From Siderastrea siderea (Eukaryota > Cnidaria > Anthozoa > Scleractinia > Rhizangiidae), in the NCBI GenBank assembly GCA_964030785.1, contig OZ034975.1, forward strand, positions 3,118,855-3,182,854: a stretch of 64,000 nucleotides of DNA, in the 5' to 3' direction. The notes under the pieces are model-generated. The model was not told the DNA's origin, made no database searches, and saw nothing but the letters and a program-made list of their open reading frames with translations. Position numbers and translations under genes: made by a program. This document shows positions 45,278 through 64,000 of the stretch, one piece after another (position 1 is the first letter of the stretch; each line of letters starts with the position of its first letter).

Positions 45278-45897
45278 TTGCTTCACAGATGTCTTTCTCC
45301 CTTGCTCGTCTTCGATGATACAGCAGCCGCACCCGTAGACAAGACTTTTCATGCTGTCTTTCTCATGGATGTCGCACAGGTTCGAGTTGTCATATGGGAG
45401 GCTGTGAAAAATTTAATTTTATACTTAAAAAGGTACTTCATCCAGTACAATCTGGCAGGTATCACAGAGATTTTCTTACTTAATATCTCCCGTTTGGGCA
45501 GCGGTACCTCTGCCTGTCCCTGGAAAAATGCTGAATACCCCGCATATCATCAGGACAATGATTCTCAACAAGAGAGCATGCTTACCGGTAGGAAACAGAT
45601 TTTACTGCATTCAGCACAGCAACCATATTAAGACCCTTGCCCACGTGCATTGCAAGAGCGAAAAACAAAAACAAAAGCAAAAACTGCCCGTGTCATCAAG
45701 ACTACATCACGAGAGAGCTCTGCTGTATAACTCAAGAGATCAAGAATCCCACGATCGACACCGCTATCCTACTACGTGAGTACGCTGGGTGCTATCAACT
45801 GCTGTGTAGCATCATGTACTCTAAAGAAGGTCAATACCTGAACGGGCGTCTGCAGAGTGGATTTCGGCGACCCAGAAAGAGAAAAAGGGGCTTGTGA
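45278..45897 (+). other. Unassigned ORF cluster in TTAA transposon core
   Basis: Three overlapping plus-strand frames (45278-45631, 45528-45779, 45637-45897) are open longer than the surroundings. The last has a C-P-C...CC cluster and a basic RRPRKRKRGL end. They could be remnants of one frame-shifted transposase ORF, but I recognise no catalytic motif, so I only flag the coding-like density. Confidence 0.3.
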
Positions 45898-45921
45898 CAT
45901 AGAGGTAGACACTATCGAAAC

Positions 45922-46421
45922 CCTAGCCTGCGTAGCAAGCGTTTACGTAGCCCTAGGGTTTTTCGTAAGTTCGAAGCATTTTTCGCTTTTTGGCCGCGCG
46001 AAAATTAGGGCGAGCGCAAAAGAAGTCGGAGAAGGGGCAGGAGAAGGGAGGAAAGAAAACGCTTGCCCGCAAAAGCCCACGATTTTGAAAAACCGAGTGC
46101 TTCGTTTCTGCAGTTCGTGGGCTTGACTTACGTGGACCATGTTTTGATTTTGACAAAAGTAAATTTGTAACATCTGGTGATCTGTGATTTGTTGCTTTAT
46201 TGACAAGCTGTCACGCTATGAATTCACCCAACCTTGAGTGCTAAAGGGGCGTTTTACAAACTTTTGCGGGCAGGCGTTTCCTTTTTTTGCCTTTCCTCCC
46301 CTCCCCCTCCCCGCTCCCGGTTCCTTTTTTTTTGCGCTCGCCTTAATTTGGCGCGGCCAAAACGCGAAATGCCTCAAAAAGGCGGAAAAGTCTACGGAAG
46401 TGCTTGCTACGCAGGCTATCG
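45922..46421. mobile_element. hAT-like MITE (AGCCTGCGTAGCAAGCG)
   Basis: Ends agcctgcgtagcaagcg and its reverse complement; the flanks atcgaaac and atcggaac could be an 8-bp target duplication, as in hAT elements. Further internal inverted matches (gcgcggccaaaa, cttttgcgggca) extend the arms to about 170 bp. Confidence 0.65.
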
Positions 46422-47828
46422 GAACTCACGAACTTAGACACATGAATGGTTGTCACGATTTACAAATAGCTTGAAACTGTCACTTGCAACTTCCTCAAGT
46501 AAATTCGACGGTGTAAACATGCTAAACAATCTTGAGTTCAACAGTTTGGAGAGCGAGCGTTTGACGTCGGGAAAAGGAAGCATATCAGCAAATCAAAATT
46601 GAAGATGAAAAATACTGGCCTAATTTTTTCACTGAATCATTTGCCGTGAAAAAGAGACTACTAATCAAAGTTGAGACCACTTTCCCAAAAAAGTATTAGG
46701 AGCAAGTGAGGCAACGGATAACGGCAGTTTTTTTTCGGGGGGGGGGGCGCAACAAACTAGGTACAGGCAAGAACTTGACAGATATTCGAGTTGATAAAGA
46801 AGCAGATAGGTCGAGGTTGTTCTCCAAGTACTAGTTCCTCACTGCACGATGGATAAGTTGTTCTCGTTCTCTTCAAGAATAATTTATAAGCTGCGTCACT
46901 CTGATAGGCGAATTGGCTTTTTACTTCGTGGTAAGCGTTTTTAAAAGTGATAGTGTTGCGCTAGAGAAGCAAAAGTTCTATACCCGATAGATTGTTTTAG
47001 ATCAAGCTTGCACAGTTATAGCACGCCATCGCTTACAACACTGACCTGAACTTGTGCGACTTGCATAAGAAATGCAGCGTGAAAATGCGAAGTTAAGCAT
47101 ACCCATGCTTAGGACTGTTTTTTAGTATTTTGGCTTGGGCAGATGTATTTCTCGCATAGCGTAAGGTGCAATATCTTTCTTCCTTAGCGGGCATTAGACC
47201 TTCTAATCAAAGACCCTAACCAAAGAACTGAATAAAATGCGGCCAAGTCCATTGTTGAGTTATGCAACCAAGGGTAGGGGGAAGGGGGTAAGGACAGTAG
47301 AACAGTAGAAAAGTACCGGACGAAACACTTAAACTTTAAAACCTGTGTGACATGCATAGGGAAGGCAGCAAGAAAAGGCTGAGAACAGCCGTGCTAAAGG
47401 CTGTTTGTGAGTATTATGGCTTGTGCACATATGTATCCCATGCAAGGCAGAAATCACAGCACCTTCTGCTGTGTCGAGGGAAGTGGCTGCTGTTTCATCG
47501 AAAACTAGAGAAAGACACTGAATTGTGTGTTTTCATGTGTTTTATTTACTAAAAGTATGTTTCACTAAGAATGGGAGTTTGAAGAGCCTTCTGGAGCGAA
47601 TGGAATTGAACGAATGTTGTGTGTTTACTGCGCTTCAGACGCTTGTTCAACAAGACTCTAACCTTTCATACTACAACGCTAAATTTTAGCGTGCTCCCTT
47701 TGGTCCAAATCGATCACGTGACGCGATACTGTCTCTCCTCAGTAGCACCTATCAACGCATATTGGCAATTCTCGCTCAAGATTTAGCGTTGAACGATAAA
47801 AACAATAGAGGGATTCTGTCTCAGGCCC
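46422..47828. other. TTAA transposon core, no recognised gene
   Basis: Only short ORFs; a G-run lies at 46737-46747. No domain is recognised. Confidence 0.4.
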
Positions 47829-47948
47829 TATGTGTGATAGGTTCCCTGGAAAATTTGATGTGCAAACTGCATATAAGCCCTCGAACTACTTTCTTGGGCT
47901 AATATTTGTTGCAAACATCAAATTTCCTCGAACAACCTATCACACGGT
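47829..47948. repeat. Hairpin at inner edge of right TIR
   Basis: Arms tgtgtgataggttcc...aaatttgatg and catcaaattt...aacctatcacac form an inverted repeat of about 35 bp around 45 bp, just inside the right TIR. Confidence 0.65.
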
Positions 47949-49158
47949 AGTGCCATCAACAGAAGAACTCTATTGTTTAAATAGGCCACCGACGTTGGGT
48001 GAACTTGCTTAGTAGTACGTGTCACCGGTTTGGACGTAAAAAATATATATAATAATAAGTATATATGTAATAAAAGCTCTCTTTTTCCTTTTTTCCCCTA
48101 TTTTTTGCTTATCAAGCACAGCGTTCGCCACCATAGTGTTGTTTCCGACGGCACGCTATGCGGGCCTAAAATCTGGTTAATCGTTAACGTAGGGAACTTC
48201 GGCCGCACTGTAGAAACATTTGACAACTCACGTGCAACATGGCTCGGCGATCTCGCTACCTGTTTTGCAATGAAAGTTGCAGTTTCCAGCCAGGAAAAAC
48301 TCACTTAATTAGGTAAGAGTTATTTCCTAAACATTTCATGAATCGGTTTTTTACTTCGTTATTGATTCCGCATTCATGTTGTAAAATTCGGTGATAAACA
48401 AAGTAGGTCAATTTCATAGCATACTTCTCTAAATTGCCCAACATCGTTCAATATTGGGAACAAAGGCCTCCAAATTCAAAATCCTGGTTTCCTCTACTTG
48501 AAAAAATTCTAGAAAAACAAGCAAACTCGTATTCTGGCGAAGGAAAGTCACATTTTAAGAGCTGCTGTGTGTCGATTTCCGTTGACATGAAAGGTCAAAG
48601 GGTCGCTCATATCACTCAAGTAGCCTGTTTTCAAAGCGCTCTCAAAATTCGCCGTTTCATTTGTCCCAAACTGTTTTTCGGCCGATGTTTAGTTGAAGTG
48701 ATTGTTCTTTCCCGGAGCATAGTCTCGTTGTGTAAAGCCATGTACCAGAGTGCTTTTTTTGAGCCTTGAATTTAGCCTAAATTGGGTTGTCCGTAACGAC
48801 CGTTGTTGGGTATAAATTATAAAATTTCGTAAAAAATTCAAGTTTGCTTTTCATGAAACTTTGACACTGCTAATAAACAGAAGAAACAAGATCTTTTAAC
48901 TCCCCGGGTTAATCTTTTTTAGGACGCTTTCGATATTTGAACAGGAGCTTCCGGAAAAGTCCCGATTTTGGCGTTGATTTTGACTGCCGCGAAGGACAAA
49001 ATAAGAAAATATTCACTAAAAAATAAATAAAAATCTAAACGACCCGAAACTTATATTTTTAGAACTAGTTCACCAAAGCCTTTATCCTGGCAGATTTTGA
49101 GAAAATCGGATTTTTTTTATCTTGCATACCCTTAGTCGGTTCTTACAGCAAACCGCTC

Positions 49159-50783: not shown

Positions 50784-52272
50784 TCAAACAAAAGAAATTG
50801 TTGAAAGATGATGGTAGCATATTATTAAAGGATTATTAAAGTAACGAAACATAAACAAAGCAATGGCTGCATTGTTTATGTCATCTAGAGGTAAAATTGA
50901 TAATTCTTTGAAAAGAGGACTAGTACGATCTGTAAATTTTGAAAATGTTATTATTCTTATTATTTTCTTGTGTAATCTTCTTATTGGTTGTAATCTTGTT
51001 GTGTGCGTATTTCCCCACGCGATGTTACCGTAACTTAGACACGGATAAATTAGTGCATAATATAGACCTTGCATGACAATGCGAGCACAAATCAGCATAG
51101 CCTCCCACGCGCATAAGTCAGTCAAAAAGTTCGTAATTTACATAAATAGAAATATTTCTAAACTGCCCTTACAGATTTTTCTTTTAAATTGATTGCCGTT
51201 AGAATAATAATTCTTTTTGATGTTCCAGCAAGTTTTAGGCTGAACAAACATTTCGTTTATTCGATAAGAAGGCTGAATCTTGGCTGGGTTTCAGTCGTTA
51301 TTAATTTTCAACAAGCAACAGTTTTATTTTGTTTTTCCTGGTCTATTTCACGGTTATTCACGTGCAATGAATATTTATACATGCTGCGCTTGTGTCCTCT
51401 CGTGCATTTATAATTCCTTCTCATAATAATAAAAAATTTTCGTCTTCTGAGCTTCTTCCTGGAGACTCTTTCAATTAGTCTTTAAATACGGATTGCATAC
51501 ATGTTAACGCCCACGATGGCATTTAACTGGGGCCGAAAAATAACGAGAAACAAGCTCAGAAGACGAATATTTCTTTTTATTAAATAGAATAAATAGAATA
51601 TTAAAAAGAATAAACGAAAGTATTTTAGAGCTCCTGTGAATGTCATTACTGTATAACAGAAATAGATAACGTTCTAGAACTCCACATAAGGTACTCCACA
51701 TAAGATTGTTTGTTTTCCAGATAATACGTTATTATATTTTACAATCCGACTTCTATTAGTAAGGTAGTTTTTAAACCACTCAAGGGCAATCCCTCTTATC
51801 CCATAATGCTCTAGTCTTCCAATAAGTATTGAGTGATTTACAGTGTCAAATGCTTTGTATAGGTCAAGAAACATACCAACAGTAAATTCATTGTTTTCTA
51901 TCGCTTCTGTGATTTTTGTAGTCAGAGTAGTTATTGCCATCTCAGTTGAATAATTCTTACGAAACCCATATTGTTCGTTATATAGTATCCTATTTTCTTC
52001 AATAAAGTTTATAAGTCGTTTGTACATTAGTTTTTCTAATAGTTTAGATAACATGGGAGAACAGCTTGGTCTATATATATTGGTGTAATCAGGGAAAATT
52101 TAAGTTGCTCTGGAATTATGCCACTTGAAAGGTATCTGTTGTAAATGATTTTTAGTGGGTACTTGATTAAATGTGCTACTTTACGTATGACTTTAGGTTG
52201 TAGATCATCAAAGCCACAGCTTTTATTTGGGTTTAATTTAATTAATTCTCTTTCTACTTCGTCTTCTGTCAC
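50784..52272 (-). pseudogene. Decayed non-LTR reverse transcriptase
   Basis: Minus-strand pieces of a LINE ORF2: 52272-52036 (LNPNKSCGFDDLQPKVIRKV, RT block 1), 52054-51674 (EQYGFRKNYSTEMAI, block 2; MFLDLYKAFDTVNHSIL, motif A; ending in CGVP of motif B) and 51125-50784 (LIYPCLSYGNIAWGNT, thumb/C-terminal block). The segment that should hold motif C (YADD) is missing. Its place is taken by about 550 bp with a small hairpin (gtcttctgagctt / aagctcagaagac, about 51441-51566), so an insertion with deletion removed the catalytic core. CR1/Jockey-like by motif style. Confidence 0.8.
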
Positions 52273-52570
52273 GGGTGTAATAAAAAAACTCTCACTTATA
52301 TTTCTACCTAACTATGTTTTGAACGACTTAGCAGATTCTGGTATGGTTTTTGCTAAATTTGGACCAATATTTAATATATAGATTTAGCCAAACCTAAAAG
52401 CGGAGCCCCCCTTTTTGTTTTGTTTGTTTGTTTGATTGTTTATTGCTGGCAGTTATTAAGAGGCTGTCTCCCTAAGAGTGTTCCACTCGATCTCGGACTC
52501 AAAACTAGATTTCCTTCAAATTTCTACCACAAATACTACTATCTATCCCTACTACTAAAATGTAATTGAA
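52273..52570. other. Left junction of the Maverick element
   Basis: Between the LINE remnant and the first polymerase codons. No terminal inverted repeat or target duplication of a Maverick is visible, so the element was truncated or rearranged here. Confidence 0.4.
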
Positions 52571-54004
52571 ATGCTCCGCGGATGTGTTGAGCGGGGTGTG
52601 GAGCTTTACAGCCCGTGCAAAGAAGCATATGAGATGTTGAAAGAAGCTGTTGTCGGAGGCCCAAACCTTGTTTTCACAAGATACCATGAAGTTGGAGTCA
52701 CGAAGATAAAGTCTCATCGAATAGCAGAACCCCGTCTTTGCAAAAATATCTTAGGTTACGACGCCAATGCTTTGTACTTGTCAACCATGCTCAGAGACAT
52801 GCCTTGCGGAAAGGGAAGGGTCGTTCACTATAACTACCAAACCGCCGCTCCCATACTAACACAAAGGCTCAAAGATGGAAAATGGTTCGGATTCGCGGAA
52901 GTAGACATAGAGATCCCAAAAACCCTGTGGCCAAAATTTGAGGAGATGTGCCCGTTCTTCTACAACAAAGAGGTGCCTGTTGAAGCTGTGCCTCAGCATA
53001 TGCTTGACTACCTAAAACGAACTAAGTGGAACCGCGGAGACGGAAAGAAGTTAGTGGGAGCATTGTCTGCAAAGAAGATATTATTATACGCTCCTCTACT
53101 TAGATGGTATCTTGAGCATGGAGCAGTGATCACAAATGTTTATCGGACGATTGACTATCAACCAACAAAAATATTCACATGGTTTGTAGAGGTTTGTAGA
53201 AGCTCGTAGAACTGGAGATAAAGATAAAAGTAAAACGCTGTTGGCCGAGGTGTTCAAGCTGTTAGGAAATAGCGGGTACGATAAACTGATCGAAGCCTTG
53301 GAGCGGCAAACAAACATCATTTACACCAAAGACGAAAAGGTAGTTGACAGAGCTTTGCGAAGCACATATTTCACTGATCTTGACAGATTGGGCAGGCGTA
53401 TGAGCTGGAAAGCCGAAAACCTCGGATCACAATAAGAAGACCATTTCAGGTAGGAATAGCTGTATATCAACTGGCAAAACTTCGAATGCTTGAATTCTAT
53501 TATGACTTTCTTGACAGATATTTTGACAGAAGAGATTTCGAATTGATTCAGATGGACACAGACAGCAATTACATGGCAATCAGCGGAGAAAAATTGGAAG
53601 ACATCATCAAACCAGAGCCGCAAACAGAATTTGAGGCAAAAAAGCAAGAGTGGTTAGCTTGGGACAAGTGGAGCAGTCGGACTCCTGGGCTCTTTAAACT
53701 CGAGTGTGAAGGCAGCAGAATGATTGCACTCTGCTCAAAATGTTATTTCGTCGACGAATCTGAGGGCGAAAAAAAGAAGTTTAGCACAAAAGGGATGTCG
53801 AAGAAGCAAAACGAGATAACCTGGCAGCGTTTCAAGAAAGCTTTGGAAGGCAGCAAGGACATAGCAACTAACAGAGGTTTCAGGATGCGGGACGGGCAGA
53901 TGGTCACTTACGAGCAGCAGAAGCTGGGGTTGAGCGCTTACTATGACAAACGCTGGGTATTGGAAGACGGTATTCACACAGAACTGATCGAGTTTCATAG
54001 TTAG
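52571..54004 (+). pseudogene. Protein-primed B-family DNA polymerase, C-terminal part
   Basis: Replicative polymerase of the element. Motif A is GYDANALYLSTM (catalytic Asp codon at 52760), motif B KLLGNSGYDKL (in the middle frame, about 53250-53285; the usual YG is YD), and motif C IQMDTDSNYMAI (Asp codons from 53555). The exonuclease domain and the N-terminal half are missing: the reading starts about 60 codons before motif A, right of a stop. Two frame breaks split the rest, near 53190 (inside a short gtttgtagag direct repeat) and near 53400. The stop at 54002-54004 overlaps the stop of the convergent integrase gene. Palm-domain layout matches pPolB of Polintons; this copy cannot make an active enzyme. 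Confidence 0.9.
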
Positions 54005-55002
54005 ATTGCCGGTGGTAGCTGTGTATCTGGAGGGACAACCAAAAGCTCTTCGCGGACAAACCCGCGTTTTGGTCCGTCAAACAAATAATAGAGAACCGGT
54101 GCATTTGGTTTTATCATAATCTTTTCAATCTCGTAAACTTTCAGAGACCAGATTGGGTCGGTAGCTCTTCGGCGTCCACCTTCAAGTTCACCGGGTTGAT
54201 AGAGATAGCGAACACTTAAACCGGAGGGGAGCTTCTTTTCGTTTACACCAACAGGTCTCAAATAAGGGGTCGAGGGTTTGGATGGAACATTTTTCTCTTT
54301 GATGGTCTCAACAGGTTTCTGACCGGTCAGTCGAGTGACTTCTTTATTCAAAGCTGAAATAACAGCGGGCAGTCGGGCCACCCATTCAGTCGATCTTTTG
54401 TCGTCTGGGAGGCGCATTTCAACCCCATATTGGTGTCCAAACAGTCTTTCAGCTAGGGTGCGGTTGAATCTTTCAACGATAGCTTGATCACGGTGAATAT
54501 CCACACGGCCGCGTCTAACCTCGACATTATGTTTCGAAAGCAGTTGATTCACAGCGCCCATAAACTCACGACCAGGATCGACCTGAAGCAGTTTCGGCCA
54601 CTTCAAAGGACCACGACTATAAATCCGTTCCAGAGCAGCTGCGACTTCTTTGGCCTCTTTTGTGGTCAACGGTTCGGCCTCTTTGTATCGAGAGGCCACA
54701 TCTACCACTGTGAGAGCATATTTGAAAGTTTTACGGGAGCGTGGTGGGCGATCGTGTGGGAGATACAGAAGATCGGCTTGGTGAACTTTGTTTGGAACAG
54801 GAACATCAAATTTCGGTCTTGGAATGTAACGTGGGGCTGGTAAATAAACCTGCCAAAGAGCTTGCTTCATCAACCAGTTTCGAGCCACACCTTCCGAGAC
54901 TTTCGCTGCCTGGGCTAATTTCTTAATCGCTGCAAACCCTTTCCAATACCCTTGCGGGCTGTGATAAATTTTTGACAACTTATTGAAAATGCGCGCGCTC
55001 AT
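54001..55002 (-). CDS. Maverick DDE (RVE-type) integrase
   Basis: A 333-residue open frame. The RNase H-like core has D77 (HQADLLYL), D142 (LLQVDPGREF) and E177 (AIVERFNRTL), a D,D-34-E arrangement of the retroviral/Polinton integrase family that inserts the element into the host genome. Residues 20-50 (FAAIKKLAQAAKVSEGVARNW) look like a helix-turn-helix; the C-terminal 80 residues (YLYQPGELEG..., VYEIEKIMIK) form the beta-rich tail seen after the catalytic core. The ATG at 55002 is 25 bp from the ATG of the divergent zinc-ribbon gene, implying a shared bidirectional promoter (gtataccatacaca). No lesion is seen. Confidence 0.92.
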   Translation of the reverse strand: MSARIFNKLSKIYHSPQGYWKGFAAIKKLAQAAKVSEGVARNWLMKQALWQVYLPAPRYIPRPKFDVPVPNKVHQADLLYLPHDRPPRSRKTFKYALTVVDVASRYKEAEPLTTKEAKEVAAALERIYSRGPLKWPKLLQVDPGREFMGAVNQLLSKHNVEVRRGRVDIHRDQAIVERFNRTLAERLFGHQYGVEMRLPDDKRSTEWVARLPAVISALNKEVTRLTGQKPVETIKEKNVPSKPSTPYLRPVGVNEKKLPSGLSVRYLYQPGELEGGRRRATDPIWSLKVYEIEKIMIKPNAPVLYYLFDGPKRGFVREELLVVPPDTQLPPAI

Positions 55003-55027
55003 TGTATACCATACACAATAAAAAAAA

Positions 55028-55618
55028 ATGGACGACCCATTTGGTTGTTTGCAAGGTGTGAAAAATTCGTCGAAAATAATTCAAGAAATATTGCAAAAAA
55101 GAAATGAATTACACTTATGCCCATTAACAAATAGGATTAATCGTTGTCCTTCATGCAAGGAGCAACTAGTTTATGTGGTGAATGAGTTCTGTCGTGAATG
55201 CCCAAAATGTGGTAGAGTGTTTGAATGTGATGATGATGAACAGTTCCAAGAAGAAAATCGGGGAAGAAGTTCCACTGCGCCTCCTACGAATAATTTTCAT
55301 TTAAAAAATGTTTTTCGGAAATGGAACATTGACAAAATGTTTTCTTCCAGCGAGGTCGCTTTTGTAAGTAATGTTATTGCTCAATTTCAGGGGATAACCG
55401 GCAAGTCAGTGAACTACCCCTGTTTGAAATGGTACCTTCTGAATGTTGGCCCCACGAAAAAGAAATTATGGAATCTATTTTTCATCACCTTCCTAAAACT
55501 TTTGCAAGCAGGCGTCGCGCAAAACAGGAGTGTGAAAAGTGGTGGTGGTCAAACAATTAAGGTTCTTCATACACATTTTCATATTTGCCAGTTTTTGGAT
55601 TTTTCACCAGACGCATGA
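55028..55618 (+). pseudogene. Zinc-ribbon protein, probable frame break in C-terminus
   Basis: Residues 40-64 carry two CxxC pairs (RCPSCKEQLVY and CRECPKCGRVFE), a zinc ribbon of the kind found in transcription factors, followed by an acidic DDDEQFQEE stretch. This layout is reminiscent of viral late transcription factors, but I cannot assign a family. The ATG frame runs to 55618, which would overlap the convergent gene by 60 bp. From about 55372 the +2 frame is also open, has a more protein-like composition (a basic RRRAK then Trp-rich end) and stops at 55558-55560, exactly overlapping the stop of the minus gene. So the true end is probably there and a frame shift lies near 55365-55400. A gtaagt...ttcag pair sits there but is only 28 bp apart, too short for a normal animal intron. 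Confidence 0.6.
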
Positions 55619-55742
55619 CAGTACCTTTTTTTGGATGAGTCCAAAATTTCTTGCTTGTGACACCAGTTGGTCCCGTGAAAGCATTTTTCGCAATATCACC
55701 TTTCCAATACCGATCGAATACAGGTTTTGTGGAAGGAATCAT
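55557..55742 (-). CDS. Small ORF / shifted C-terminus of PLA2-like protein
   Basis: 61 codons from an ATG embedded in a nine-A run at the end of the PLA2-like frame, ending in a basic, Gly/Lys-rich tail (KTGKYENVYEEP). It could be an independent small gene translated by reinitiation or, more simply, the last 60 residues of the PLA2-like protein separated by slippage in the A-run (55743-55752). Stops overlap with the convergent zinc-ribbon gene. Confidence 0.55.
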   Translation of the reverse strand: MIPSTKPVFDRYWKGDIAKNAFTGPTGVTSKKFWTHPKKGTVMRLVKNPKTGKYENVYEEP

Positions 55743-56538
55743 TTTTTTTTGTCGAAGTTTCAGCTAATTTTATTGCATCCAACGGTTTATCCAAAACACC
55801 AGTCCCCTTTTGTTGTTTCAAACCTAACCCTAACTTTTGTTTAGCATTGATTGTATGTCTTGCAGCCGCATGACCCCACTGTCTTTGTTTGTAAGGAACT
55901 GCGTCAAGAGCCTTCACCATTTTTTTGTCCGCTTTATGTTTACATTTTTTGAGATTTTCACCATATTTTTCTTCACGGTTGGAACAAACATCATAATCAA
56001 CATCATGTTGCATAGCAATCGCATCTGTTGCACCTGTCGGTTTCTGATATATTTCCAGAATTTCACCCGTTTCTGGATTGTAGTTCACCTGCTTTTCAAG
56101 AGGATTGTATGGCCCTGTATAATTATGCCCCGGTAATGTCCAACCCTGTTTTGGTTTGGGAAATTTTCCTATTGCTGCATGTATATCAAACCCAGCCCCA
56201 TCTAAATCAGGTCTGTCCGTTTTGTAGCGTCTATTTGGTCGAATTTTTTTTGAAAGTTGATCTAACATTTCACTACCAACTTTTTCAATGACTGGGCGGG
56301 TTTTGTCAAGAGTGTAATTTATTGCTTTCTTTTGCAGTTTTGGGTCTCTCATTGCTTCAGAAGCGTAATATCTTCCAGCTTCAACACTTTTTTTCGCAAG
56401 ATATGGGATTCCTTTTGTAATGGCTAGATCACCCACCGCCATGGCAACGTCGCCAAATATACCACTGCCCTCCGCGTGGGAGGGCTCACCTAGTTTCCCG
56501 GCATAAAACGTGTTTTTGTTATTCCGCAACTAGCGCAT
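55696..56538 (-). pseudogene. Phospholipase A2-like capsid protein, nonsense near start
   Basis: The protein carries a parvovirus/adintovirus-style secreted-PLA2 core: calcium-loop-like GHNYTGPYNP (residues 134-143 of the open frame) and the catalytic helix MQHDVDYD with His175-Asp176. In parvoviruses this activity opens endosomal membranes during entry. The N-terminal 60 residues are Gly/Ala-rich with amphipathic helices. The likely ATG (56536-56538) is followed two codons later by TAG (56530-56532), after which the frame is open. At the other end an A-run shifts the frame into the 61-residue ORF. So two lesions bracket an intact catalytic core. It is first in a minus-strand run leading to the capsid genes. 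Confidence 0.8.
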
Positions 56539-56649
56539 TTTACCTTTAAGAGTTTTCGATTGTTTTTTATGATTACAATCTTTTCACTTCCCTACACATT
56601 GGGCGTGTGTCGCTTTTCTTTCACGCAGTACACTTCCATTGTATATATT
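56530..56649. other. AT-rich spacer between PLA2-like gene and protease
   Basis: About 110 bp without ORF; contains tgtatatatttta near 56641, which fits the AT-rich motif seen before other genes. Confidence 0.4.
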
Positions 56650-57096
56650 TTATGAAAAATAATTTTTCACTATTTCCTCGTTTTGAAGTAAATCGTTGGA
56701 GAACACTTTCAAAATATCGGCAAAACTTGTTCCTTTGTTTCTTTCGTTTAAAAAGAGAAGGCAGTAGTAACCACATCTCACACTTTGTTCCCATTGAATT
56801 TGGTTATCATTTCTGAAAAAATGTGTCATCCCGTGTATTGACATTTCTTGTTCCCATTCTAAAGGTGGTGGAAAACCAAATGAATCGAAATACTCGTAAG
56901 TACCTTTGTCTTTGGCAGACCAACAACATACCCAATGAGTTCCCAAACTTCCAAAATCATCTAAATTTTTAATACCTGGGGAATGAAACAAGAGTTTTAC
57001 TTCATTTCTGCTGAAAATACCTTTTATTGGAATTCGTAAAAAGTTGCACCATTTTCTGAGGTTAATGTTGGATAGAGGTTTATCTTCAAATTTCAG
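56650..57096 (-). pseudogene. Adenain-type cysteine protease, start codon lost
   Basis: Maturation protease that cleaves capsid precursors. The catalytic set is visible: GTHWVCCW (His), EYFDSFGF (Asp in the position of adenain Glu), Q...SVRCGYYCLLFL (oxyanion Gln and nucleophile Cys). The open frame extends upstream of the first TTG through KFEDKPLSNINLRKWCNFL (a typical family N-terminus) to a stop that belongs to the pX-like gene, but has no ATG; a CTG at 57094-57096 stands where one is expected, so the start appears mutated. Counting from it, His is 54 and Asp 71, the adenain spacing, and Cys 108. Length of 148 codons is short for the family. Confidence 0.85.
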
Positions 57097-57102
57097 TTTT
57101 TT

Positions 57103-57795
57103 TTAATAATAATCATCCCAAGTTCCCAAAAAAGGTGGAGGTCGAATTTGCATTCCTTTACCTTTAGGAGGTGGTGGTAAAGGTGGTGCTCGTCGTGGTC
57201 GTGAGCGTGGTGGTTGAGTTTGCAAACCTTTTCCGATTATTTTTCGGACTAAATCAATGGCCAAAGGTACTCCGATAGACGCTAACATACCAAGAAAACC
57301 ACTATACTGTGCTGAACCGCCTCCTTTTACTAAACCTTTTCCAACAAGATATTGTTCTGCCGTTTTTTTCTGAGTAGGAGTCATTTGCTGGACAAGTTTA
57401 TAAAGCTCAATTTCCTTCGGCCCAAAACCCTTTCCGAATATCTTTTTCAGCACCTTTTCAGCGCCGAAACTCAAACCTGCACTTGCTAATGCCCCAAGGG
57501 CTGGCTTTATCAAAGGTCGTGCCAAACCTAGCATAGCAGAAAACAAACTTCCACCACGCTGCGCAGTATTTTGAATCTGGGTCTGGCTTAATTTTATTTC
57601 CAGTCCTTTACCTGCTGCTGAGGTTTTTTTCAGTCGCGAGATTTGAGTAGCAGTGAGAAGTATTTCGTCACCACGTCCAATTTGATCTGGCTTAACTCTC
57701 AGAGTAACAGCTGTCTTCGAAACATAAGCTTTTTGAAGTTTCTTTTTCTGTCCATCAGTCAGTGCAATTTTATATGGATGATAAGTTGTGCTCAT
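57103..57795 (-). CDS. pX-like minor capsid / membrane-active protein
   Basis: 230 residues. Two Gly-rich amphipathic or hydrophobic stretches, RGGSLFSAMLGLARPLIKPA...LASAGLSFGAEKVL (about 80-125) and YSGFLGMLASIGVPLAIDLV (about 165-185), each followed by a basic GKG patch, then an Arg/Pro-rich tail (RPRRAPPLPPPPKGKG) ending GTWDDYY. This is the layout of adenovirus late proteins X/VI-like products of Mavericks and adintoviruses, thought to coat DNA or disrupt membranes. The frame is intact. Ends 7 bp before the protease reading. An ATATAATATAC box lies about 10 bp before the ATG. Confidence 0.75.
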   Translation of the reverse strand: MSTTYHPYKIALTDGQKKKLQKAYVSKTAVTLRVKPDQIGRGDEILLTATQISRLKKTSAAGKGLEIKLSQTQIQNTAQRGGSLFSAMLGLARPLIKPALGALASAGLSFGAEKVLKKIFGKGFGPKEIELYKLVQQMTPTQKKTAEQYLVGKGLVKGGGSAQYSGFLGMLASIGVPLAIDLVRKIIGKGLQTQPPRSRPRRAPPLPPPPKGKGMQIRPPPFLGTWDDYY

Positions 57796-59093
57796 CGTGT
57801 GTATATTATATTCAAATTTTTTTTTGTCAAGACGACGACAAGCTCATTACCAATTTGCTTCAACACAAATTCTTGTTCATTCAAAACCGCGGCGAAGATC
57901 ATATAATCTTGAGCGTTAGCGGCTTCGTTAAGTCTGTAATGAAATTCGAGCTTTTTGGGATCGTCTGTCAAACCTTCTTTGGTATTTCGCAGATCGAAGT
58001 AGATAACTGGGTATAACAACTCAAAATAGGAAAGCGGCAGCTGAACGCCGGTGTTATAGTCATTCTTTCTGTATCTGAAATTGATCAAATCATTCAAAAT
58101 TCTTATTTTAAAATCATAGTCATATTCAAGCTCAGGATAAAAATCTGTGCCGTACTGAAGACGGCAAGTGTCCAATTTTGCTGTGTTATCACCATCGACA
58201 TCGAATGTGTCAACGATGTAAGGGTTGTATTCGTGATTATTTTGTTTCCGAGTTTGTTGAATGAATACAAAAACATGCTTGGGGTTTTTTACCCCAGGTG
58301 TAATCAACCACCTACCATTCGCATCCCTGCGGGCGCTGCTCTGTGTCAAATTTTCTTGCAGGTATTTCCATTGGGTTGGCTTCAAGAAATTTTCATTGAC
58401 CAGGGTTTGTCCTTTGCCAGTGAAATGTAATTGTGGAACCCACAACTCAAATTTACGGACAATAATTCTTCGAGCTGTTCCATCGTTTTGCCAAATCATT
58501 TCTTCATCGTCTTGCAGAGTAATTTCAAACTCAAAATGTATCGGTGGCATCAACCTGTCGGAAAGACTTTCGAAGAAGGAGTATCTGTTCAAAGGGATGA
58601 TGGTATGAACTGTTTTGCCTTGATGTGATAGAAGCGCCCTTGACCGAATTCCAAGGTTCGTCGCAGTGGCTGCTGCAGTCACAGTGGTGTTGTCATTGTC
58701 AAGATACCAAAAATGGTTTTTTGCCACGCTTCTCGAAAAATCGTCCGAAAAGTCAAGCAGGTTTTTGATGAAAACAACCTTGTGGATATTGTCTGCCTCG
58801 TATAATTTTTTTCCAGATGATTTAACGGTCAAATTTTTGATCAATGAGAAAGAACCGTTGATCGGAGCCGATCGAGTGTCAGCAGCAATATCGCCTCCGT
58901 TTGCTTTTGCTTCAAAGTCGAAATCGACGCGGAAATAAGCGTTGTACCAATCATAAAAATTGTCCCGGTCTTTCAAGTTAAATTTGTAGCCCGACTTGTT
59001 TTGAGTTTGGTTATTCCCAGGGAAAGTGAGCGCAGTGTCCAAATCAACTCGAATGTATGTAGTCTTCTCGAGGTATGGTGGAGTTCTGAACAT
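57792..59093 (-). CDS. Major capsid protein candidate (double jelly roll)
   Basis: 433 residues, intact, and the largest beta-rich protein in the block. The N-terminus (TTYIRVDLDTALTFPGNN) is strand-rich; an internal IIPLNRYSFFESLSDRLMPP followed by IHFEFEITLQDDEEMIW fits the boundary region between the two jelly rolls of Polinton/adintovirus hexons, and a second strand-rich half (VRKFELWVPQLHF ... FELLYPVIYFDLRN) follows. Position between pX-like and penton-type genes matches the usual cluster. The stop overlaps the start region of the pX-like gene by 4 nt. TTAATATAAAC sits about 18 nt before the ATG. The call rests on pattern and synteny. Confidence 0.8.
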   Translation of the reverse strand: MFRTPPYLEKTTYIRVDLDTALTFPGNNQTQNKSGYKFNLKDRDNFYDWYNAYFRVDFDFEAKANGGDIAADTRSAPINGSFSLIKNLTVKSSGKKLYEADNIHKVVFIKNLLDFSDDFSRSVAKNHFWYLDNDNTTVTAAATATNLGIRSRALLSHQGKTVHTIIPLNRYSFFESLSDRLMPPIHFEFEITLQDDEEMIWQNDGTARRIIVRKFELWVPQLHFTGKGQTLVNENFLKPTQWKYLQENLTQSSARRDANGRWLITPGVKNPKHVFVFIQQTRKQNNHEYNPYIVDTFDVDGDNTAKLDTCRLQYGTDFYPELEYDYDFKIRILNDLINFRYRKNDYNTGVQLPLSYFELLYPVIYFDLRNTKEGLTDDPKKLEFHYRLNEAANAQDYMIFAAVLNEQEFVLKQIGNELVVVLTKKNLNIIYTR

Positions 59094-59134
59094 CTTGACA
59101 AGAGTTTATATTAAGAGAGAAAAAATTTCTTTGA

Positions 59135-59272
59135 TTAAATTTCGTTTGCCAAAATTTGATTCAATTTCACAAGTGCGTCATCTGATTTTTTAGGCATTTG
59201 GTTTTGCAAAATATTTGTAAGTTTCTTTTTTGCATCCTGCGATACCATTTTTTGTTTTCGTAGTTCTTGCAT
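59135..59272 (-). CDS. 45-residue coiled ORF between MCP and penton genes
   Basis: A short frame from ATG at 59272 to TAA at 59135, composed of Gln/Lys/Leu-rich helices (LRKQKMVSQDAKKKLTNILQ, then DDALVKLNQILANE) and ending 42 bp before the MCP start. The frame has a stop just upstream of its ATG. It overlaps the degenerate tail of the penton reading in another frame. It may be an intact microprotein gene or the surviving 3' end of a gene whose start was deleted together with the penton C-terminus. Confidence 0.4.
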   Translation of the reverse strand: MQELRKQKMVSQDAKKKLTNILQNQMPKKSDDALVKLNQILANEI

Positions 59273-59878
59273 TTGCTAACATGAAGATCTGATGTTGAGA
59301 AACTGTATAACACATCGCTTGGAACATTGTTTGTTCGGCGTGTGATAAGATCGCAGTGCAAATACACCCAATCAACACCTCTTGTGATATTAGGAACTTT
59401 TCTTCCGACAACATCTCCACTCAAGATACTTTTACCATAACCAAGCAATTCAGAGAAATTTCCTTGCGACAAGTCAAGCTCATAATCGTTATCTATCAAA
59501 GTCACAACCCTATAAATTGACATATCGAAATATATATTAAAAATGAAATCACTGTCTTTGTCTTTCGGGTCTACTTTACCGGTGTGTTGCTGAATAAAAC
59601 GCTTTGATTTTTTTGCAATCATACATTCCGTTTGGAAAAGTTAAGGTCTTCCACGCTTCAGTTTTTTTTCTCCAGCGAATTTTGTTGTTATTATAATGAG
59701 AATCGATATTATTCCATGAATAACTCATTGTGACAAGTCTGTTTAGCGCGGCTTTAAAGTTTCCTGAACCCAAGCCGATAGGGGGATAAAAATTCACTGT
59801 AAAGTCGTGTGAAACATTCCGTTCTCCACCTCTTTCTAGTTTTGCAAGGCTCGAGTCAAGAAGTATATCAAAGCTCAT
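59167..59878 (-). pseudogene. Penton-type minor capsid protein, frame-broken
   Basis: N-terminal part 59878-59600 (SHDFTVNFYPPIGLGSGNFK, ALNRLVTMSYSW) and C-terminal part about 59615-59167 (YELDLSQGNFSELLGYGKSI; VPNITRGVDWVYLHCDLITR; VLYSFSTSDLHVS) are in frames offset by one base, with the break near 59600-59615. The pattern is that of the single-jelly-roll minor capsid (penton base) of Mavericks, which forms the five-fold vertices. After the SFSTSDLHVS strand the usual final strands (about 40 residues) are missing and the reading becomes low-complexity, so a C-terminal deletion is also likely. The ATG at 59878 is preceded by ATTATATAAAA. Confidence 0.75.
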
Positions 59879-59926
59879 TATTGTTTTATATAATTAGTAA
59901 TAATTTTTTCTTTTCCTTTTCATTTA

Positions 59927-60928
59927 TTATACTGAGTTCAACAAGTGAATCAAGCAGAAAAATACCTGTTTTTTAAGTTTTATCGAGTTGTTTCCTGCTT
60001 TTATTGATCCTAAACTTAAATGAAGTTGGTCGATTATTTTTTCAGCTTCATCAGAGAAGCCACTTCCTTCGGTTTCCCCCCAATCCTGTTCAGAATAGTC
60101 ATCTTCATTGTCCGAATACTCAACATAAGGTCTTCGGCTCATGACAGCTTTTTCAAGAGGAGTTTTGGTGATTTCTCTTTTTTCCGGTTTTTCAGGTGGT
60201 TTTAATTTCATCTTCCCTTCTTGTAATTGTGTCAATAAAGGCTGTTTTCTTTTAAGTAGCTTTTCTGTATGTTCTCGATGTGCTTTAATAGTTTCGAGTT
60301 TGTATTCCTCTTCTTTTAGTTTTTCTATATCATATCCGTAATATTTTGATTCCTTACTTTTTACTTTGTAAGTTGGGTCATCTCCATATCTGGAAAGTAT
60401 AGTTCTTACATTTCTAAGCCGGTTTGATATTTCTTTTTTTGTTTCATCTTTGGAAGTTCCTGGCATAACAGTTTCTTCCATCAAAGGTGGAGGTGGTAAT
60501 GGAAGATCATCAAATTCTTGATATGGGGGTGGTTGTGATGTTGGTACTCTAGGTGTTGTGGTTGTTGTGGGTGTTGTTGGTGGTGATGATGCTGGAGTTG
60601 GTGCATCCGGTCTGAATTCATCACCAAAAGGGTTGGTTCTGTCAAATTCATCCATGCTGTAATCAGGACCTTCCTGCTCTTCTTCTTCTTCTTCTTCTTC
60701 TTCTTCTTCTTCTTCTTCTTCTTCTTCTTCTTCTTCTTCTTCTTCTACTACAGTGGCGCTGCTCTTTTCATCAAGTCTTTTTGTAATTGGTTTAAAAAAC
60801 TCCTCTCCTGAAAGCTTACCAAACTCTTTGTTAATTTCATCCATTCTAAATTTTTGGTGAATTTCTTCTGTTTGCTGATCAACCGCCGACTTTTCTTCAG
60901 CCAACTGACGCCATTTTTTCACTGACAT
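59927..60928 (-). CDS. Acidic, proline-rich coiled protein with poly-Glu tract
   Basis: 333 residues from the ATG at 60928; the longer frame from 60997 would run into the divergent ATPase gene and lacks the upstream TATATA box, so I chose the internal start (MSVKKWRQLAEE). Order: helical N-terminus, a run of about 30 Glu encoded by a (CTT)n microsatellite on the plus strand (about 60680-60746), Pro/Thr-rich spacer (PPTTPTTTTTPRVPTSQPPP), a PPPY-like QPPPYQEF, a lysine-rich coiled coil (about 190-265), and an acidic tail. PPxY is a motif that recruits Nedd4-type ligases in enveloped viruses, though its role here is unknown. No family is recognised; the position suggests a virion or assembly (scaffold-like) protein. 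Confidence 0.7.
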   Translation of the reverse strand: MSVKKWRQLAEEKSAVDQQTEEIHQKFRMDEINKEFGKLSGEEFFKPITKRLDEKSSATVVEEEEEEEEEEEEEEEEEEEEEEEQEGPDYSMDEFDRTNPFGDEFRPDAPTPASSPPTTPTTTTTPRVPTSQPPPYQEFDDLPLPPPPLMEETVMPGTSKDETKKEISNRLRNVRTILSRYGDDPTYKVKSKESKYYGYDIEKLKEEEYKLETIKAHREHTEKLLKRKQPLLTQLQEGKMKLKPPEKPEKREITKTPLEKAVMSRRPYVEYSDNEDDYSEQDWGETEGSGFSDEAEKIIDQLHLSLGSIKAGNNSIKLKKQVFFCLIHLLNSV

Positions 60929-60962
60929 ATTTCCAGCGTGAATATATAGAAGCGAAAAAAAA
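60929..60962. promoter_or_regulatory. Bidirectional promoter with TATATA
   Basis: Only 34 bp separate two divergent ATGs. It contains gaatatatag, so one AT-rich box would serve both the acidic protein (minus) and the ATPase (plus), with very short leaders. Confidence 0.5.
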
Positions 60963-61583
60963 ATGAAGCTTTTGAATCCTGACCAAGGTTCTTCCAAGAA
61001 TAACTACAAGCAAGGCCATCCTTGCATGCCAGCAGATGTTTTCCGGATGCTAATTTGTGGACTTAGTAATTCTGGCAAAACAAACATATTAATGAATATG
61101 ATTTATTTTTTGTTGGAGTTTGATAAAATCTACTTATTTTCAAAAAACCTGCACCAGAACAAATACCAGACTCTTTTGCAGGACTTTGCTGAACAAATAA
61201 ACCCCACGGTTGGTTATGAGGTTATTGAGGCTTATGGTGATGAAATCATTCCACTCGAAGATCTTCCGGTGGAGAACCAAAAAATTGTTGTTTTTGATGA
61301 TCTTGTTTGTGAAAGCAACCAAAACAGCATCATTAATTATTTCATCAACGGGCGGCACAGAAACTGCTGCGTTGTTTACCTCACTCAAACCTTCTACAAG
61401 GTGCCGAAAAACATCCGTGATAACTGCAGCCATTTTTGTATTTTAAATTTTCGTCCAAGAGAAAACAAACGGATTGCAGATGAGCTAGGTGTGGATTGTG
61501 ATATTTTAGAACGCGCCACCGATGAAGAGTATTCTTTCTTTTACTATGACAAACCCCGAAAATTAATGAAAAAAAAATTTTGA
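60963..61583 (+). CDS. A32-like genome-packaging ATPase (FtsK/HerA)
   Basis: 206 residues, intact. Walker A is MLICGLSNSGKTN (residues 29-41, Lys39/Thr40), Walker B KIVVFDDL (107-114, Asp112/Asp113), and the sensor strand VVYLTQTFYKVPKNIRDNC has Gln142. This is the poxvirus A32-type branch of FtsK/HerA motors that drives viral DNA into preformed capsids, a Maverick hallmark. Starts 34 bp from the divergent acidic-protein gene and is followed after 12 bp by the fibre gene on the same strand. Confidence 0.93.
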   Translation: MKLLNPDQGSSKNNYKQGHPCMPADVFRMLICGLSNSGKTNILMNMIYFLLEFDKIYLFSKNLHQNKYQTLLQDFAEQINPTVGYEVIEAYGDEIIPLEDLPVENQKIVVFDDLVCESNQNSIINYFINGRHRNCCVVYLTQTFYKVPKNIRDNCSHFCILNFRPRENKRIADELGVDCDILERATDEEYSFFYYDKPRKLMKKKF

Positions 61584-61595
61584 TGAAGATATATA

Positions 61596-63397
61596 ATGGG
61601 GTATATTAACAGCCAAATAAGTGGAACTAACCAAACGATGAGTGAAAGTGAAAAAGTGGGTCCTCCTGGCCCAGGAGGTCCTCCTGGCCCCGAGGGTCCT
61701 CCTGGGCCGAAGGGTGATAAAGGCCCAGCGGGACCACAAGGTCCTTATGGACCGAGGGGTGAAAAAGGTGCCACGGGTCCACAAGGTCAGAAGGGGACAC
61801 AAGGACCACAGGGTTTAAAGGCGATAAAGGCAATAAAGGCGATAAAGGTGATAAAGGTGATAAAGGTGATAAAGGTGATAAAGGTGATAAAGGTGATCGT
61901 GGACCTCAGGGTAGTGCAAGCGGTTCTGCTGATATTGACATGCAAAATAAGTACGATATTTTGCGATTAAAAAGCAATCCTTATCCTATCCACGGTGATC
62001 TGTCAAAGGTAATAAACTATCAGGACACGAGAAATATCTTTCTTTCAAAAAAGGAAGGCGGGAAAATGGAAGCAAGCATTGATATGAATAATAATTCACT
62101 TTTCAACGTAAAAGACCCAGAACAGGTAGATCAAGCCACAAACAAAAAATATGTCGATAATCAGCTTGTTAAAAAACTGGATACAGAAACGGATATTGAT
62201 ATGAAAAATAATTCGATTATCAATCTTGATCTTCCATCAAAACCAAGAGACGCCGCATGTGTCGAATTTGTTAACAACAGAATTGATGCCATAACACACA
62301 CAAAGTTTCTCAGGTTTGATGGCACTAACAGAATGACTGGAGACCTAAATTTAAATAACAATAAAATTGTCAACTTACACACCGATGGCAAAGATCTGAA
62401 ATCTGCAGTTAATGTTGATTTTATGCAAAGTGAAATAACATCTTTGTCAGATTTTGTCAATCAAAAAATTCGTGAATCCCATATCACTAGCTCGACACAA
62501 AAAAGGGACGCCTTCAGATACTTGATGGAAGACACTGATGAATCTTCGAGTGAAAACAACATCGAGGTTTTGGGTATCAACGATTTTCCTGATTCTGCAC
62601 ATCAAATAACTAAAAAAGCTTACTCTCTCAAACTCCTGTTTGAAAAAGGCTCACCCAACCAATACCGGTCACGCCTCGGTTTTAACCTATATAAACTTCC
62701 GGTCGGTTACTATACTATGGTTGTTGAATGGTTTCCACCAAAAATGAATGAGGTGAGTGTAACACCACAAGCCACGACTATTTCGATTTCTAATCATACA
62801 ACCAAAACATTCGAGAAGTACACCAAAACGGTTATCCATTTTCACAGATGGAGTAGCTCACCCCCGCAATACCTATATCTCGATCTGCACGGTACGGTCC
62901 GTAATCCATCATTAATGACAATTGGTCATCTAATTGTTTATGGTGTTAAAGAAACAATTTCAAACGTTGATCCAAGTGTCTATGACACCGCTTTTGTTAT
63001 TGAAAATGAAAAAATGGTAATGCAAACAGATTTGTCTTTAAACGGACATAATTTGAGTGGTTCAGTTCATCGCATAAATGGTTTTGTAGATACGAAACAG
63101 GGTTTTAGATTTTTATTAAATGGTTGTGATGAAATAATTATGAATCAGAATAATTTAATAAAAAAAATGAAATTAATACATTCAAGCCAAAAAAGTGAAT
63201 ATACACCTATTTCCTTACAGATAAAGCATACAACCCCCTCATCATCACATATTGGAAAAATTTTTAGTTCAACCGAAACAACTAAAACACAGACAATTTC
63301 TATTAATCAAATGTTTCCGTATTGTTGTACAATGCTCATAGATTTGAATTCGCCTGCAAAAGATGAAAAAATCTTGATGTTGCTTGAATATATATAG
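61596..63397 (+). pseudogene. Collagen-stalk fibre with phage-tail-fibre-like repeats, one frameshift
   Basis: An ATG at 61596 leads, after about 28 residues, into Gly-X-Y triplets ([20 protein letters not shown]...). Near 61818 the frame slips by one base and the GDK triplets continue in the other frame, which runs open to 63397. After the collagen tract come three or four repeats of the form (I/L)D-M/L-NNNxIxNLxxPxxxxDAxxxxYVDN (ASIDMNNNSLFNVKDPEQVD; TDIDMKNNSIINLDLP; GDLNLNNNKIVNL), like the shaft repeats of phage tail fibres. A beta-rich head follows (about 230 residues: KLPVGYYTMVVEWFPPKM; VIHFHRWSSSPPQYLYLDLH; LIVYGVKE). A trimeric receptor-binding spike is the natural reading (inference). 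The break may be a real lesion or a base-call problem in a purine run. Confidence 0.8.
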
Positions 63398-63431
63398 TAT
63401 CACAAACATTTTTTTTATATTATATAGCATA

Positions 63432-63890
63432 ATGCAGAATATATATGAATTCAACCATATCGATCAGACACTTTCTAAAGAGAAAGTTAAAATTCTGAAA
63501 GATTTATATGCGTATTACCACAAGAAACATTATGGTTATGAAAAGCTGTACCGCAGTTTTCGACGAAAAAATTTTGTTTGTAATCTTTCAGCTGGCAAAT
63601 TAATTATTAGTGCCGCAGTTGCCGGAGGAATTACGTTGAACCCTGCTGTCATGGCAACTTTAACTGGTGTTGGTCTTGTTTTAAAAGCAGTCGCTAGCCT
63701 GAAGAAATATGATAAGAAAACAGAACAAGCAAATTTTGCCCGTATCGAATACCAGAAAATTCTTGATGAGATTCGCTTTTACCTCAGAGGTGAAGCTTTC
63801 AACGAGGTTTTTCTTGATAGATTGAAAATGATAGATAATTTCGTCACTGATCATTGTATGGAGTATGAAAAAACATTCGCTCCGTTGTAG
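63432..63890 (+). CDS. Small hydrophobic-hairpin protein
   Basis: 152 residues from the ATG at 63432, which follows a tatattatata box; the longer frame from 63384 would overlap the fibre stop and adds a low-complexity leader, so I prefer this start. A basic N-terminal helix region (KKHYGYEKLYRSFRRKNF) is followed by a Gly/Ala-rich hydrophobic segment (SAAVAGGITLNPAVMATLTG, about residues 55-80) and a charged C-terminal helix bundle. One hairpin-like membrane segment between soluble helices recalls SLATT-type proteins, but no family can be claimed. Frame intact. Confidence 0.6.
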   Translation: MQNIYEFNHIDQTLSKEKVKILKDLYAYYHKKHYGYEKLYRSFRRKNFVCNLSAGKLIISAAVAGGITLNPAVMATLTGVGLVLKAVASLKKYDKKTEQANFARIEYQKILDEIRFYLRGEAFNEVFLDRLKMIDNFVTDHCMEYEKTFAPL

Positions 63891-64000
63891 ATTTTCAAAG
63901 TAATTATATACGCTTACAAAATGATTGCAACTTTGCAAGCTATTTGTTATTTGGTTATTTTTGAACTTCTTTCACCGCCAGAAATAAAACAAATACGATT
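63891..64000. other. Right edge, element continues
   Basis: No terminal inverted repeat is seen before the window ends, so the Maverick probably continues to the right. Confidence 0.4.

What the first reader, a model, noticed from the sequence alone, without database searches (positions are those of the whole stretch)
52571..64000. A largely complete endogenous Maverick/adintovirus-like element with an unusual virion gene set
Polymerase, integrase, protease, A32-like ATPase, penton-type and MCP-type genes place it with Mavericks/adintoviruses (motifs seen). On top of the core it carries a PLA2-like protein, a collagen-stalk fibre, a zinc-ribbon protein, an acidic PPxY-containing protein and a hydrophobic-hairpin protein. 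Several genes are intact, which suggests recent integration or recent activity in this lineage.
Basis: partly seen in the sequence, partly recalled or inferred. Interest (0 to 1): 0.9.

Follow-up and report, generated by a model that had tools for sequence, protein, structure and literature searches.

The report
Decayed Polinton provirus with hairpin-ended kin
The stretch is a damaged copy of a virus-like Polinton that sits in many copies in what is probably a stony-coral genome; such elements are already known in corals, but most of the close relatives examined end in long, co-evolving DNA palindromes that appear to change together with the polymerase gene.

Summary

This copy is a fossil: the left arm with half of PolB is gone and six genes are broken. 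Six of seven independent relatives with both ends have 98.9-99.5% identical TIRs, so the family, not this copy, was recently active. Coral polintoviruses are prior art (Stephens 2024, seen only as a citation).

Two features look new to me: (1) 14 of 15 type-A ends are a ~182-bp palindrome whose arms covary between elements (16 of 84 pairs changed on both sides, 0 of 500 shuffles); (2) PolB type and TIR type agree at 11 of 11 readable loci, only two of them type B, although integrase (93-95%) and MCP (83-93%) stay similar in DNA, so PolB and its origin may swap as a cassette. Hairpin-based replication is inferred.

The parts
52574..54004 (+). C-terminal half of type-A PolB in at least three frame pieces (52559-53209, about 53200-53435, 53486-54004); motifs YDANALYLS and DTDS (recalled as PolB motifs); N-terminal half absent: pseudogene
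   Evidence: PF03175 7.6e-5, below Pfam's cut-off; homology to five copies begins at 52574-52577; frames; left arms of three copies not found in the window
54001..55002 (-). integrase, 333 aa, frame intact, D77-D142-34-E177
   Evidence: rve 4.6e-10; 92.9-95.4% DNA identity to 8 copies, longest match each; median dN/dS 0.23
55028..55618 (+). zinc-ribbon protein (ribbon by cysteine pattern only); frame lost after about residue 144
   Evidence: comparison with copies; no Pfam or NCBIfam family
55696..56529 (-). parvovirus-type PLA2-like protein with HDxxY; frame lost after residue 262
   Evidence: PF08398 3.5e-9; copies read on in another frame
56650..57102 (-). protease frame, adenain-like by motif only; no ATG near its start
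   Evidence: PF00770 E 0.088 on a 113-aa piece, below cut-off; no hit for the 150-aa frame; 76.7-91.3% aa identity, best stretch per copy, in 8 of 8 copies
57103..57795 (-). 230-aa protein with glycine-rich hydrophobic stretch and proline-rich tail (pVI/pX-like minor capsid by recall only)
   Evidence: found at 8 of 8 copies, in part only at several
57792..59093 (-). major capsid protein, 433 aa, double jelly roll; runs on past the usual NELVVV-type end
59167..59878 (-). penton base remnant: one frame shift, and the C-terminal third lost in a deletion of about 0.4 kb
   Evidence: penton-to-MCP start distance 785 nt here, 1181-1219 nt in 6 of 7 copies measured, 963 nt in the other; fold of an intact relative
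59927..60928 (-). acidic protein with PPPY motif (residue 132 of 332) and a 23-residue acidic run; tail frame-shifted
   Evidence: a similar protein is fused to the MCP in a gene model of Oculina patagonica, P0086
60963..61583 (+). A32/FtsK-like packaging ATPase, intact
   Evidence: PF04665 2.2e-14
61596..63397 (+). fibre: collagen stalk, phage-tail-fibre-like repeats, head; frame break near 61.8 kb
   Evidence: PF01391 5.2e-10, phrog tail-fibre hits from 7e-4, 948 relatives of the head frame, frames
63384..63890 (+). hydrophobic-hairpin protein, SLATT_1-like below cut-off, frame open
   Evidence: NCBIfam 4.3e-5, 23.5 bits of 41 needed; 2 of 2 relatives tested also match weakly; median dN/dS 0.20

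Best explanation
A decayed provirus of a high-copy polintovirus family in a cnidarian, probably stony-coral, genome. Inferred life cycle: a 16-20 kb linear DNA virus is copied by its PolB from terminal origins, packaged by the A32-type ATPase into a capsid of double-jelly-roll MCP and penton with a trimeric collagen-stalk fibre, matured by a cysteine protease, and leaves the endosome with a parvovirus-type PLA2. The integrase inserts the genome with a 5-bp target duplication. In the type-A lineage nearly every end examined is a ~182-bp palindrome kept self-complementary within each element, so a folded hairpin or cruciform end probably forms during replication or end repair; PolB and this end appear to be exchanged together against the integrase and virion block. 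Shown: genes, predicted folds, order, TIRs, target duplications, palindromes, covariation, PolB-TIR agreement. Inferred: virions, functions, the hairpin step, the swap as an event.
Against: No particle or transcript data. MCP and penton have no sequence match to solved structures beyond one E 0.45 hit judged chance. The window's own end lacks the palindrome, as does one type-A end, C3c. Both ends of an element carry the palindrome in the same orientation in 6 of 6 elements, which rolling-hairpin replication would not by itself predict. Number of further pair types was not above shuffles (144 of 500), and the shuffles do not allow for relatedness. Only two type-B loci were found; one supplied the type-B reference, and for the other (C11a) only the far end was read. 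The protease rests on motifs alone, and no PolB terminal-protein or OTU-like domain was detected by Pfam.
Confidence: 0.85

Rival explanations
1. The terminal palindromes play no part in replication: one ancestral fold-back duplication arose, and arms stay alike by gene conversion or template switching in the host genome.
For: Both ends are in the same orientation in 6 of 6 elements; the type-B element C1a lacks a palindrome and still inserted with a perfect 5-bp duplication; C11b arms differ more (83-84%), its 3' arm resembling that of C14a.
Against: Both-side changes at 16 of 84 pairs differ between elements but mostly match within them; in five of six elements the two ends differ at only 1-2 positions (7 in C6a), so the arms were alike before insertion.
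Confidence: 0.45
2. This copy itself is a recent or still active integration.
For: Six frames are open, including integrase, MCP and ATPase.
Against: Left arm and half of PolB missing; PolB, penton, fibre, zinc-ribbon, PLA2 and PPxY frames broken; own terminal repeat eroded; closest MCP copy only 87% in protein.
Confidence: 0.05
3. Host-domesticated capsid locus kept for antiviral or other host function.
For: MCP, ATPase and hairpin frames are open; dN/dS below 1.
Against: Disabled partner genes beside it; many copies with mosaic decay; low dN/dS is expected from selection on the virus before insertion.
Confidence: 0.05
4. A strict adintovirus (same family as the turtle and midge references) rather than a separate cnidarian polintovirus lineage.
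For: A Stylophora coral adintovirus is named in PMC11071308 (passages); an Adintovirus sp. capsid and a MELD virus protein are among the 50 BFVD hits shown.
Against: PMC10120064 reports cnidarian MCPs as the only metazoan MCPs outside the main Maverick-Polinton cluster (passages); those structural hits share only 10-12% identity.
Confidence: 0.35

Closest known systems
Polintoviruses of stony corals (Stephens et al. 2024, Virus Evolution veae039; not held, seen only as a citation and one sentence in PMC12220804)
   Same: Endogenous Polintons in coral genomes, by title and citing sentence
   Different: Cannot compare in detail; whether palindromic ends or PolB-TIR swaps are reported there is unknown to me
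Maverick/Polinton elements of vertebrates (PMC8097293, passages)
   Same: TIRs with an (AGT)2 end motif as reported there; PolB, integrase and capsid genes (recalled)
   Different: 5-bp instead of 6-bp target duplications; long terminal palindromes; fibre with collagen stalk
Stylophora coral adintovirus/Polinton (PMC11071308, passages and section 11)
   Same: Coral Polinton
   Different: There the terminal protein is a separate gene; not determined here
Mavirus and other virophages (PMC8547959, passages)
   Same: Penton fold closest to mavirus; 5-6 bp duplications cited for mavirus and Polintons
   Different: Animal host (inferred); MCP scores higher against PBCV-1 and Faustovirus MCPs than against mavirus
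Parvovirus ends and VP1 PLA2 (recalled; PF08398 hit)
   Same: Terminal palindrome plus PLA2-like domain
   Different: Polinton gene set with PolB; no flip/flop seen

Membership tests
Polinton/Maverick | family B DNA polymerase | tested here: met
   PF03175 in relative L018 8.5e-12, above cut-off; window piece 7.6e-5, just below it
Polinton/Maverick | retroviral-type integrase with DDE triad | tested here: met
   rve 4.6e-10, D-D-34-E
Polinton/Maverick | DJR major capsid protein and jelly-roll penton | tested here: met
   for the window MCP; for the penton of an intact relative
Polinton/Maverick | packaging ATPase | tested here: met
   PF04665 2.2e-14
Polinton/Maverick | adenain-type cysteine protease | tested here: inconclusive
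   motif only; Pfam C5 E 0.088 below cut-off on a piece, no hit for the longer frame
Polinton/Maverick | terminal inverted repeats | tested here: met
   8 of 10 relative flank pairs; the window copy itself has lost one end
Polinton/Maverick | 6-bp target duplication (5-6 bp for mavirus and Polintons in PMC8547959) | tested here: inconclusive
   5 bp at 7 of 7 independent insertions; 6 bp matches 0-2 of 6
Adintovirus (definition in PMC11071296, passages) | hexon recognisable by BLASTP against reference adintoviruses | not tested
   reference sequences not available here
Adintovirus (definition in PMC11071296, passages) | PolB with N-terminal OTU-like domain | tested here: inconclusive
   no Pfam hit for it in the 7 relative PolB frames scanned
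Adintovirus (definition in PMC11071296, passages) | integrase with C-terminal chromodomain | tested here: inconclusive
   no Pfam chromodomain hit in the 333-aa integrase
Parvovirus-like hairpin telomeres (recalled) | terminal palindrome that can fold on itself | tested here: met
   14 of 15 type-A ends of relatives; not the window's own end
Parvovirus-like hairpin telomeres (recalled) | flip and flop orientations of the palindrome | tested here: not met
   6 of 6 elements have both ends in the same orientation

The most novel reading that the evidence does not exclude
A lineage of animal polintoviruses ends its genome in ~182-bp hairpin telomeres that are re-templated each replication cycle, and PolB plus this telomere form a replication cassette that moves as a unit between viruses sharing integrase and virion genes.
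Probability: 0.3. Interest if true: 0.75.

Novelty: new variant of a known kind. Interest (0 to 1): 0.5.

Why it matters
Coral polintoviruses are known, so this copy alone is ordinary. How Polintons replicate and end their genomes is, to my knowledge, not shown experimentally. Covarying terminal palindromes, and an origin that appears to travel with its polymerase, would make the end structure directly testable. They would also bear on how parvovirus-like and Polinton-like replication came to mix (bidnaviruses, recalled).

Tried and rejected
No relative was found in IMG/VR with ATPase, MCP, MCP alignment or integrase (the tool notes that records near the window's own genome may be left out). 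No solved-structure sequence match for MCP, integrase, penton profile or fibre profile (a single E 0.45 hit in 56 was judged chance), and only weak AAV VP1 matches (0.27 and up) for the PLA2 protein. Zinc ribbon: no family. PADLOC gave no convincing hit for the hairpin protein (3 proteins, one E 0.049). TIR-A pattern not in the window. Literature: adintovirus+collagen, Polinton+5-bp target site (0 papers), Polinton+palindrome/hairpin (142 papers, 15 listed, listing only) showed nothing on palindromic Polinton ends. This covers only the held library; Stephens 2024 and Starrett 2021 were not readable. Selections and rows dropped: the alignments took 53 of the 120 listed MCP relatives, 49 of 120 penton relatives and 36 of 120 fibre relatives; C6c was dropped as a duplicate of C6a (same flanks); C3c was left out of the covariation set because it has no palindrome; in dN/dS only the best tblastn stretch per copy was used, without gap or stop codons (no stretch fell under the 60-codon floor). 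A copy count with other genes or with the TIR, and a genome-wide count of solo palindromes, could not be done.
Full report

HOST AND COPY NUMBER. The window is C10:3118855-3182854 of an 831-Mb assembly of 402 contigs; the MCP has 97 matches, its own included (a lower bound; 97 of 3,079 first-look candidates were scored), the nearest at 87% protein identity. The protein database holds 1,192 relatives; of the 120 listed, one bears an organism name, the coral Oculina patagonica. Stony coral is therefore an inference.

CO-OCCURRENCE. Eight other copies were fetched as 10-kb pieces around the MCP. The order PolB+, INT-, ZnR+, PLA2-, PRO-, pX-, MCP-, PEN-, PPxY-, ATPase+, fibre+, hairpin+ is kept in 8 of 8 as far as each piece reaches. 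Integrase to penton were found in all eight. PolB was seen in five (once at only 24% identity, L016); L012 and L017 end within the integrase and L014 shows none beyond it. PPxY, ATPase and fibre were found in seven: in L015 nothing was recognised for 3.7 kb beyond the penton. The hairpin gene was found in five. Two extra ORFs lie right of the window (L009:479-904 +, 1226-1723 -), without Pfam hits.

BOUNDARIES AND DECAY. Homology to five copies begins at 52574-52577, inside PolB. The left arms of three copies find no match elsewhere in the window, and 52450-52577 is a different repeat also found at L031:621-748. The right terminus is L009:1976, ending ACTACT. PolB is in several frames. The penton has a frame shift and a deletion (penton-to-MCP start distance 785 nt against 1181-1219 in 6 of 7 copies measured, 963 in the other). 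The fibre changes frame in the collagen region, where natural ribosomal slippage was not tested. Zinc-ribbon, PLA2 and PPxY lose frame late, and the MCP runs past the usual end. This is a fossil.

ENDS OF RELATIVES. Of ten flank pairs examined, eight show TIRs: C6a 95.1%, C3a 98.9, C3b 99.1, C5a 99.5, C1a 99.5, C1b 99.5, C11b 99.1 and C6c 95.6; C6c is a duplicate of C6a. C11a and C14a gave no full-length pair. TIR arms are identical at insertion if made by terminal replication (inference), so about 1% difference means recent insertion. Target duplications are 5 bp: 6 perfect and one 4 of 5, over 7 independent insertions. A held paper gives 5-6 bp for mavirus and Polintons (PMC8547959, passages) and another 6 bp for vertebrate Mavericks (PMC8097293, passages), so this is within range.

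TWO REPLICATION TYPES. C1a and C11a carry a different PolB (C1a with an Endonuclease VII domain, 9e-8; C11a 75-87% identical to C1a in three stretches), while their integrases are 94.5 and 94.9% and their MCPs 91.9 and 91.3% identical to the window's in DNA. Both have a different end (TIR-B; C11a read at the far end only) that shares with TIR-A the first nine bases and otherwise only chance-length matches. Where both types could be read, they agree at 11 of 11 loci: 9 A/A (C6a, C3a, C3b, C5a, C1b, C11b, C14a, C3c, C5b) and 2 B/B. Two of the 11 (C6a, C1a) supplied the PolB references. Chance agreement given 9 and 2 is 1 in 55 (my arithmetic), so the link is suggestive, not proven; C1c and C7a have PolB-A but no end was found in the piece, and C6b has no readable PolB. 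PMC11071296 (passages) reports mixed hexon/PolB pairings in adintoviruses, so polymerase exchange itself is known.

PALINDROMES. The first 181-187 bases of 14 of 15 type-A ends are 83-93% self-complementary; C3c is not, nor are 3 of 3 type-B ends, nor the window's own end. One end folds as a nearly perfect stem of about 84 pairs, -90.9 kcal/mol, z -25.6. On an alignment of 8 elements (C3b far end, polymerase-side ends of the other seven), 97.0% of cells pair and 16 of 84 pairs changed on both sides against 8.2 in shuffles (0 of 500 as high); slid registers give 0-2. 'Further pair types' was not above shuffles (144 of 500). The shuffles do not allow for relatedness, and the structure came from one of the eight sequences, which favours the paired-cells measure. 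Within-element arm identity of the outer 45 nt is 83-98%; between elements it averages 83% (5' against 3' arm) and 87% (5' against 5' arm). Both ends of an element keep the same orientation in 6 of 6 (1-7 against 13-30 differences), which speaks against classical flip/flop.

SELECTION AND MOSAICISM. Median pairwise dN/dS, window against 8 copies, is 0.20 (hairpin), 0.22 (protease, PLA2), 0.23 (integrase), 0.35-0.47 (230-aa, PPxY, ATPase, MCP, fibre, penton piece) and 0.65 (zinc ribbon, inflated by its lost frame). For one pair (window against C6a), dS ranges from 0.15 (integrase) to 0.96 (PPxY), which suggests recombination between viruses; rate differences were not excluded.

PRIOR ART. PMC12220804 (passages) says that endogenous PLVs are known in stony corals, citing Stephens 2024, and describes collagen and phage-like fibres in PLVs. 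PMC10120064 (passages) reports cnidarian MCPs as outliers. PMC11071308 (passages and section 11) describes a Stylophora Polinton. So the element is a known kind; the covarying terminal palindromes and the PolB-TIR agreement are the part for which I found no report in the searches listed.

Noticed in passing
window 63384-63890: The conserved hydrophobic-hairpin protein weakly matches the SLATT_1 family of NCBIfam (23.5 bits, 41 needed; two-TM effectors by recall); 2 of 2 relatives tested do too.
   Followed up: partly
P0121-P0240 (fibre relatives): The fibre head is conserved while stalks differ between collagen (Pfam-marked) and non-collagen, phage-fibre-like forms such as P0150.
   Followed up: partly
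window 44618-48574: Inverted repeats (66-195 bp arms, 94-98% complementary, spanning about 4 kb): a probable DNA transposon with long TIRs; next to it 155-bp tandem repeats seen from 44000, where the scan began, and a 7-bp minisatellite.
   Followed up: no
window 51674-52099, 8152-9312, 15457-16032: Frames that look like reverse transcriptases of non-LTR retrotransposons; only the first was tested (RVT_1 1.4e-13), and it lies near the broken left edge of the element.
   Followed up: no
window 3168-4231: Open frames with repeats resembling EPTP repeats (recalled, not tested), used only as a hint to the host.
   Followed up: no
L009:1977-2127: A foldback repeat (outer arms 97% complementary) abuts the right terminus of the element.
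   Followed up: no
L022: Copy C11a has long minisatellite-like arrays (repeating VGSFDMVGPFEP-like in translation) on its polymerase side.
   Followed up: no
G000 C6:33158568 and C6:33347014: C6a and C6c share flanks and target duplication: one insertion duplicated about 188 kb apart.
   Followed up: yes
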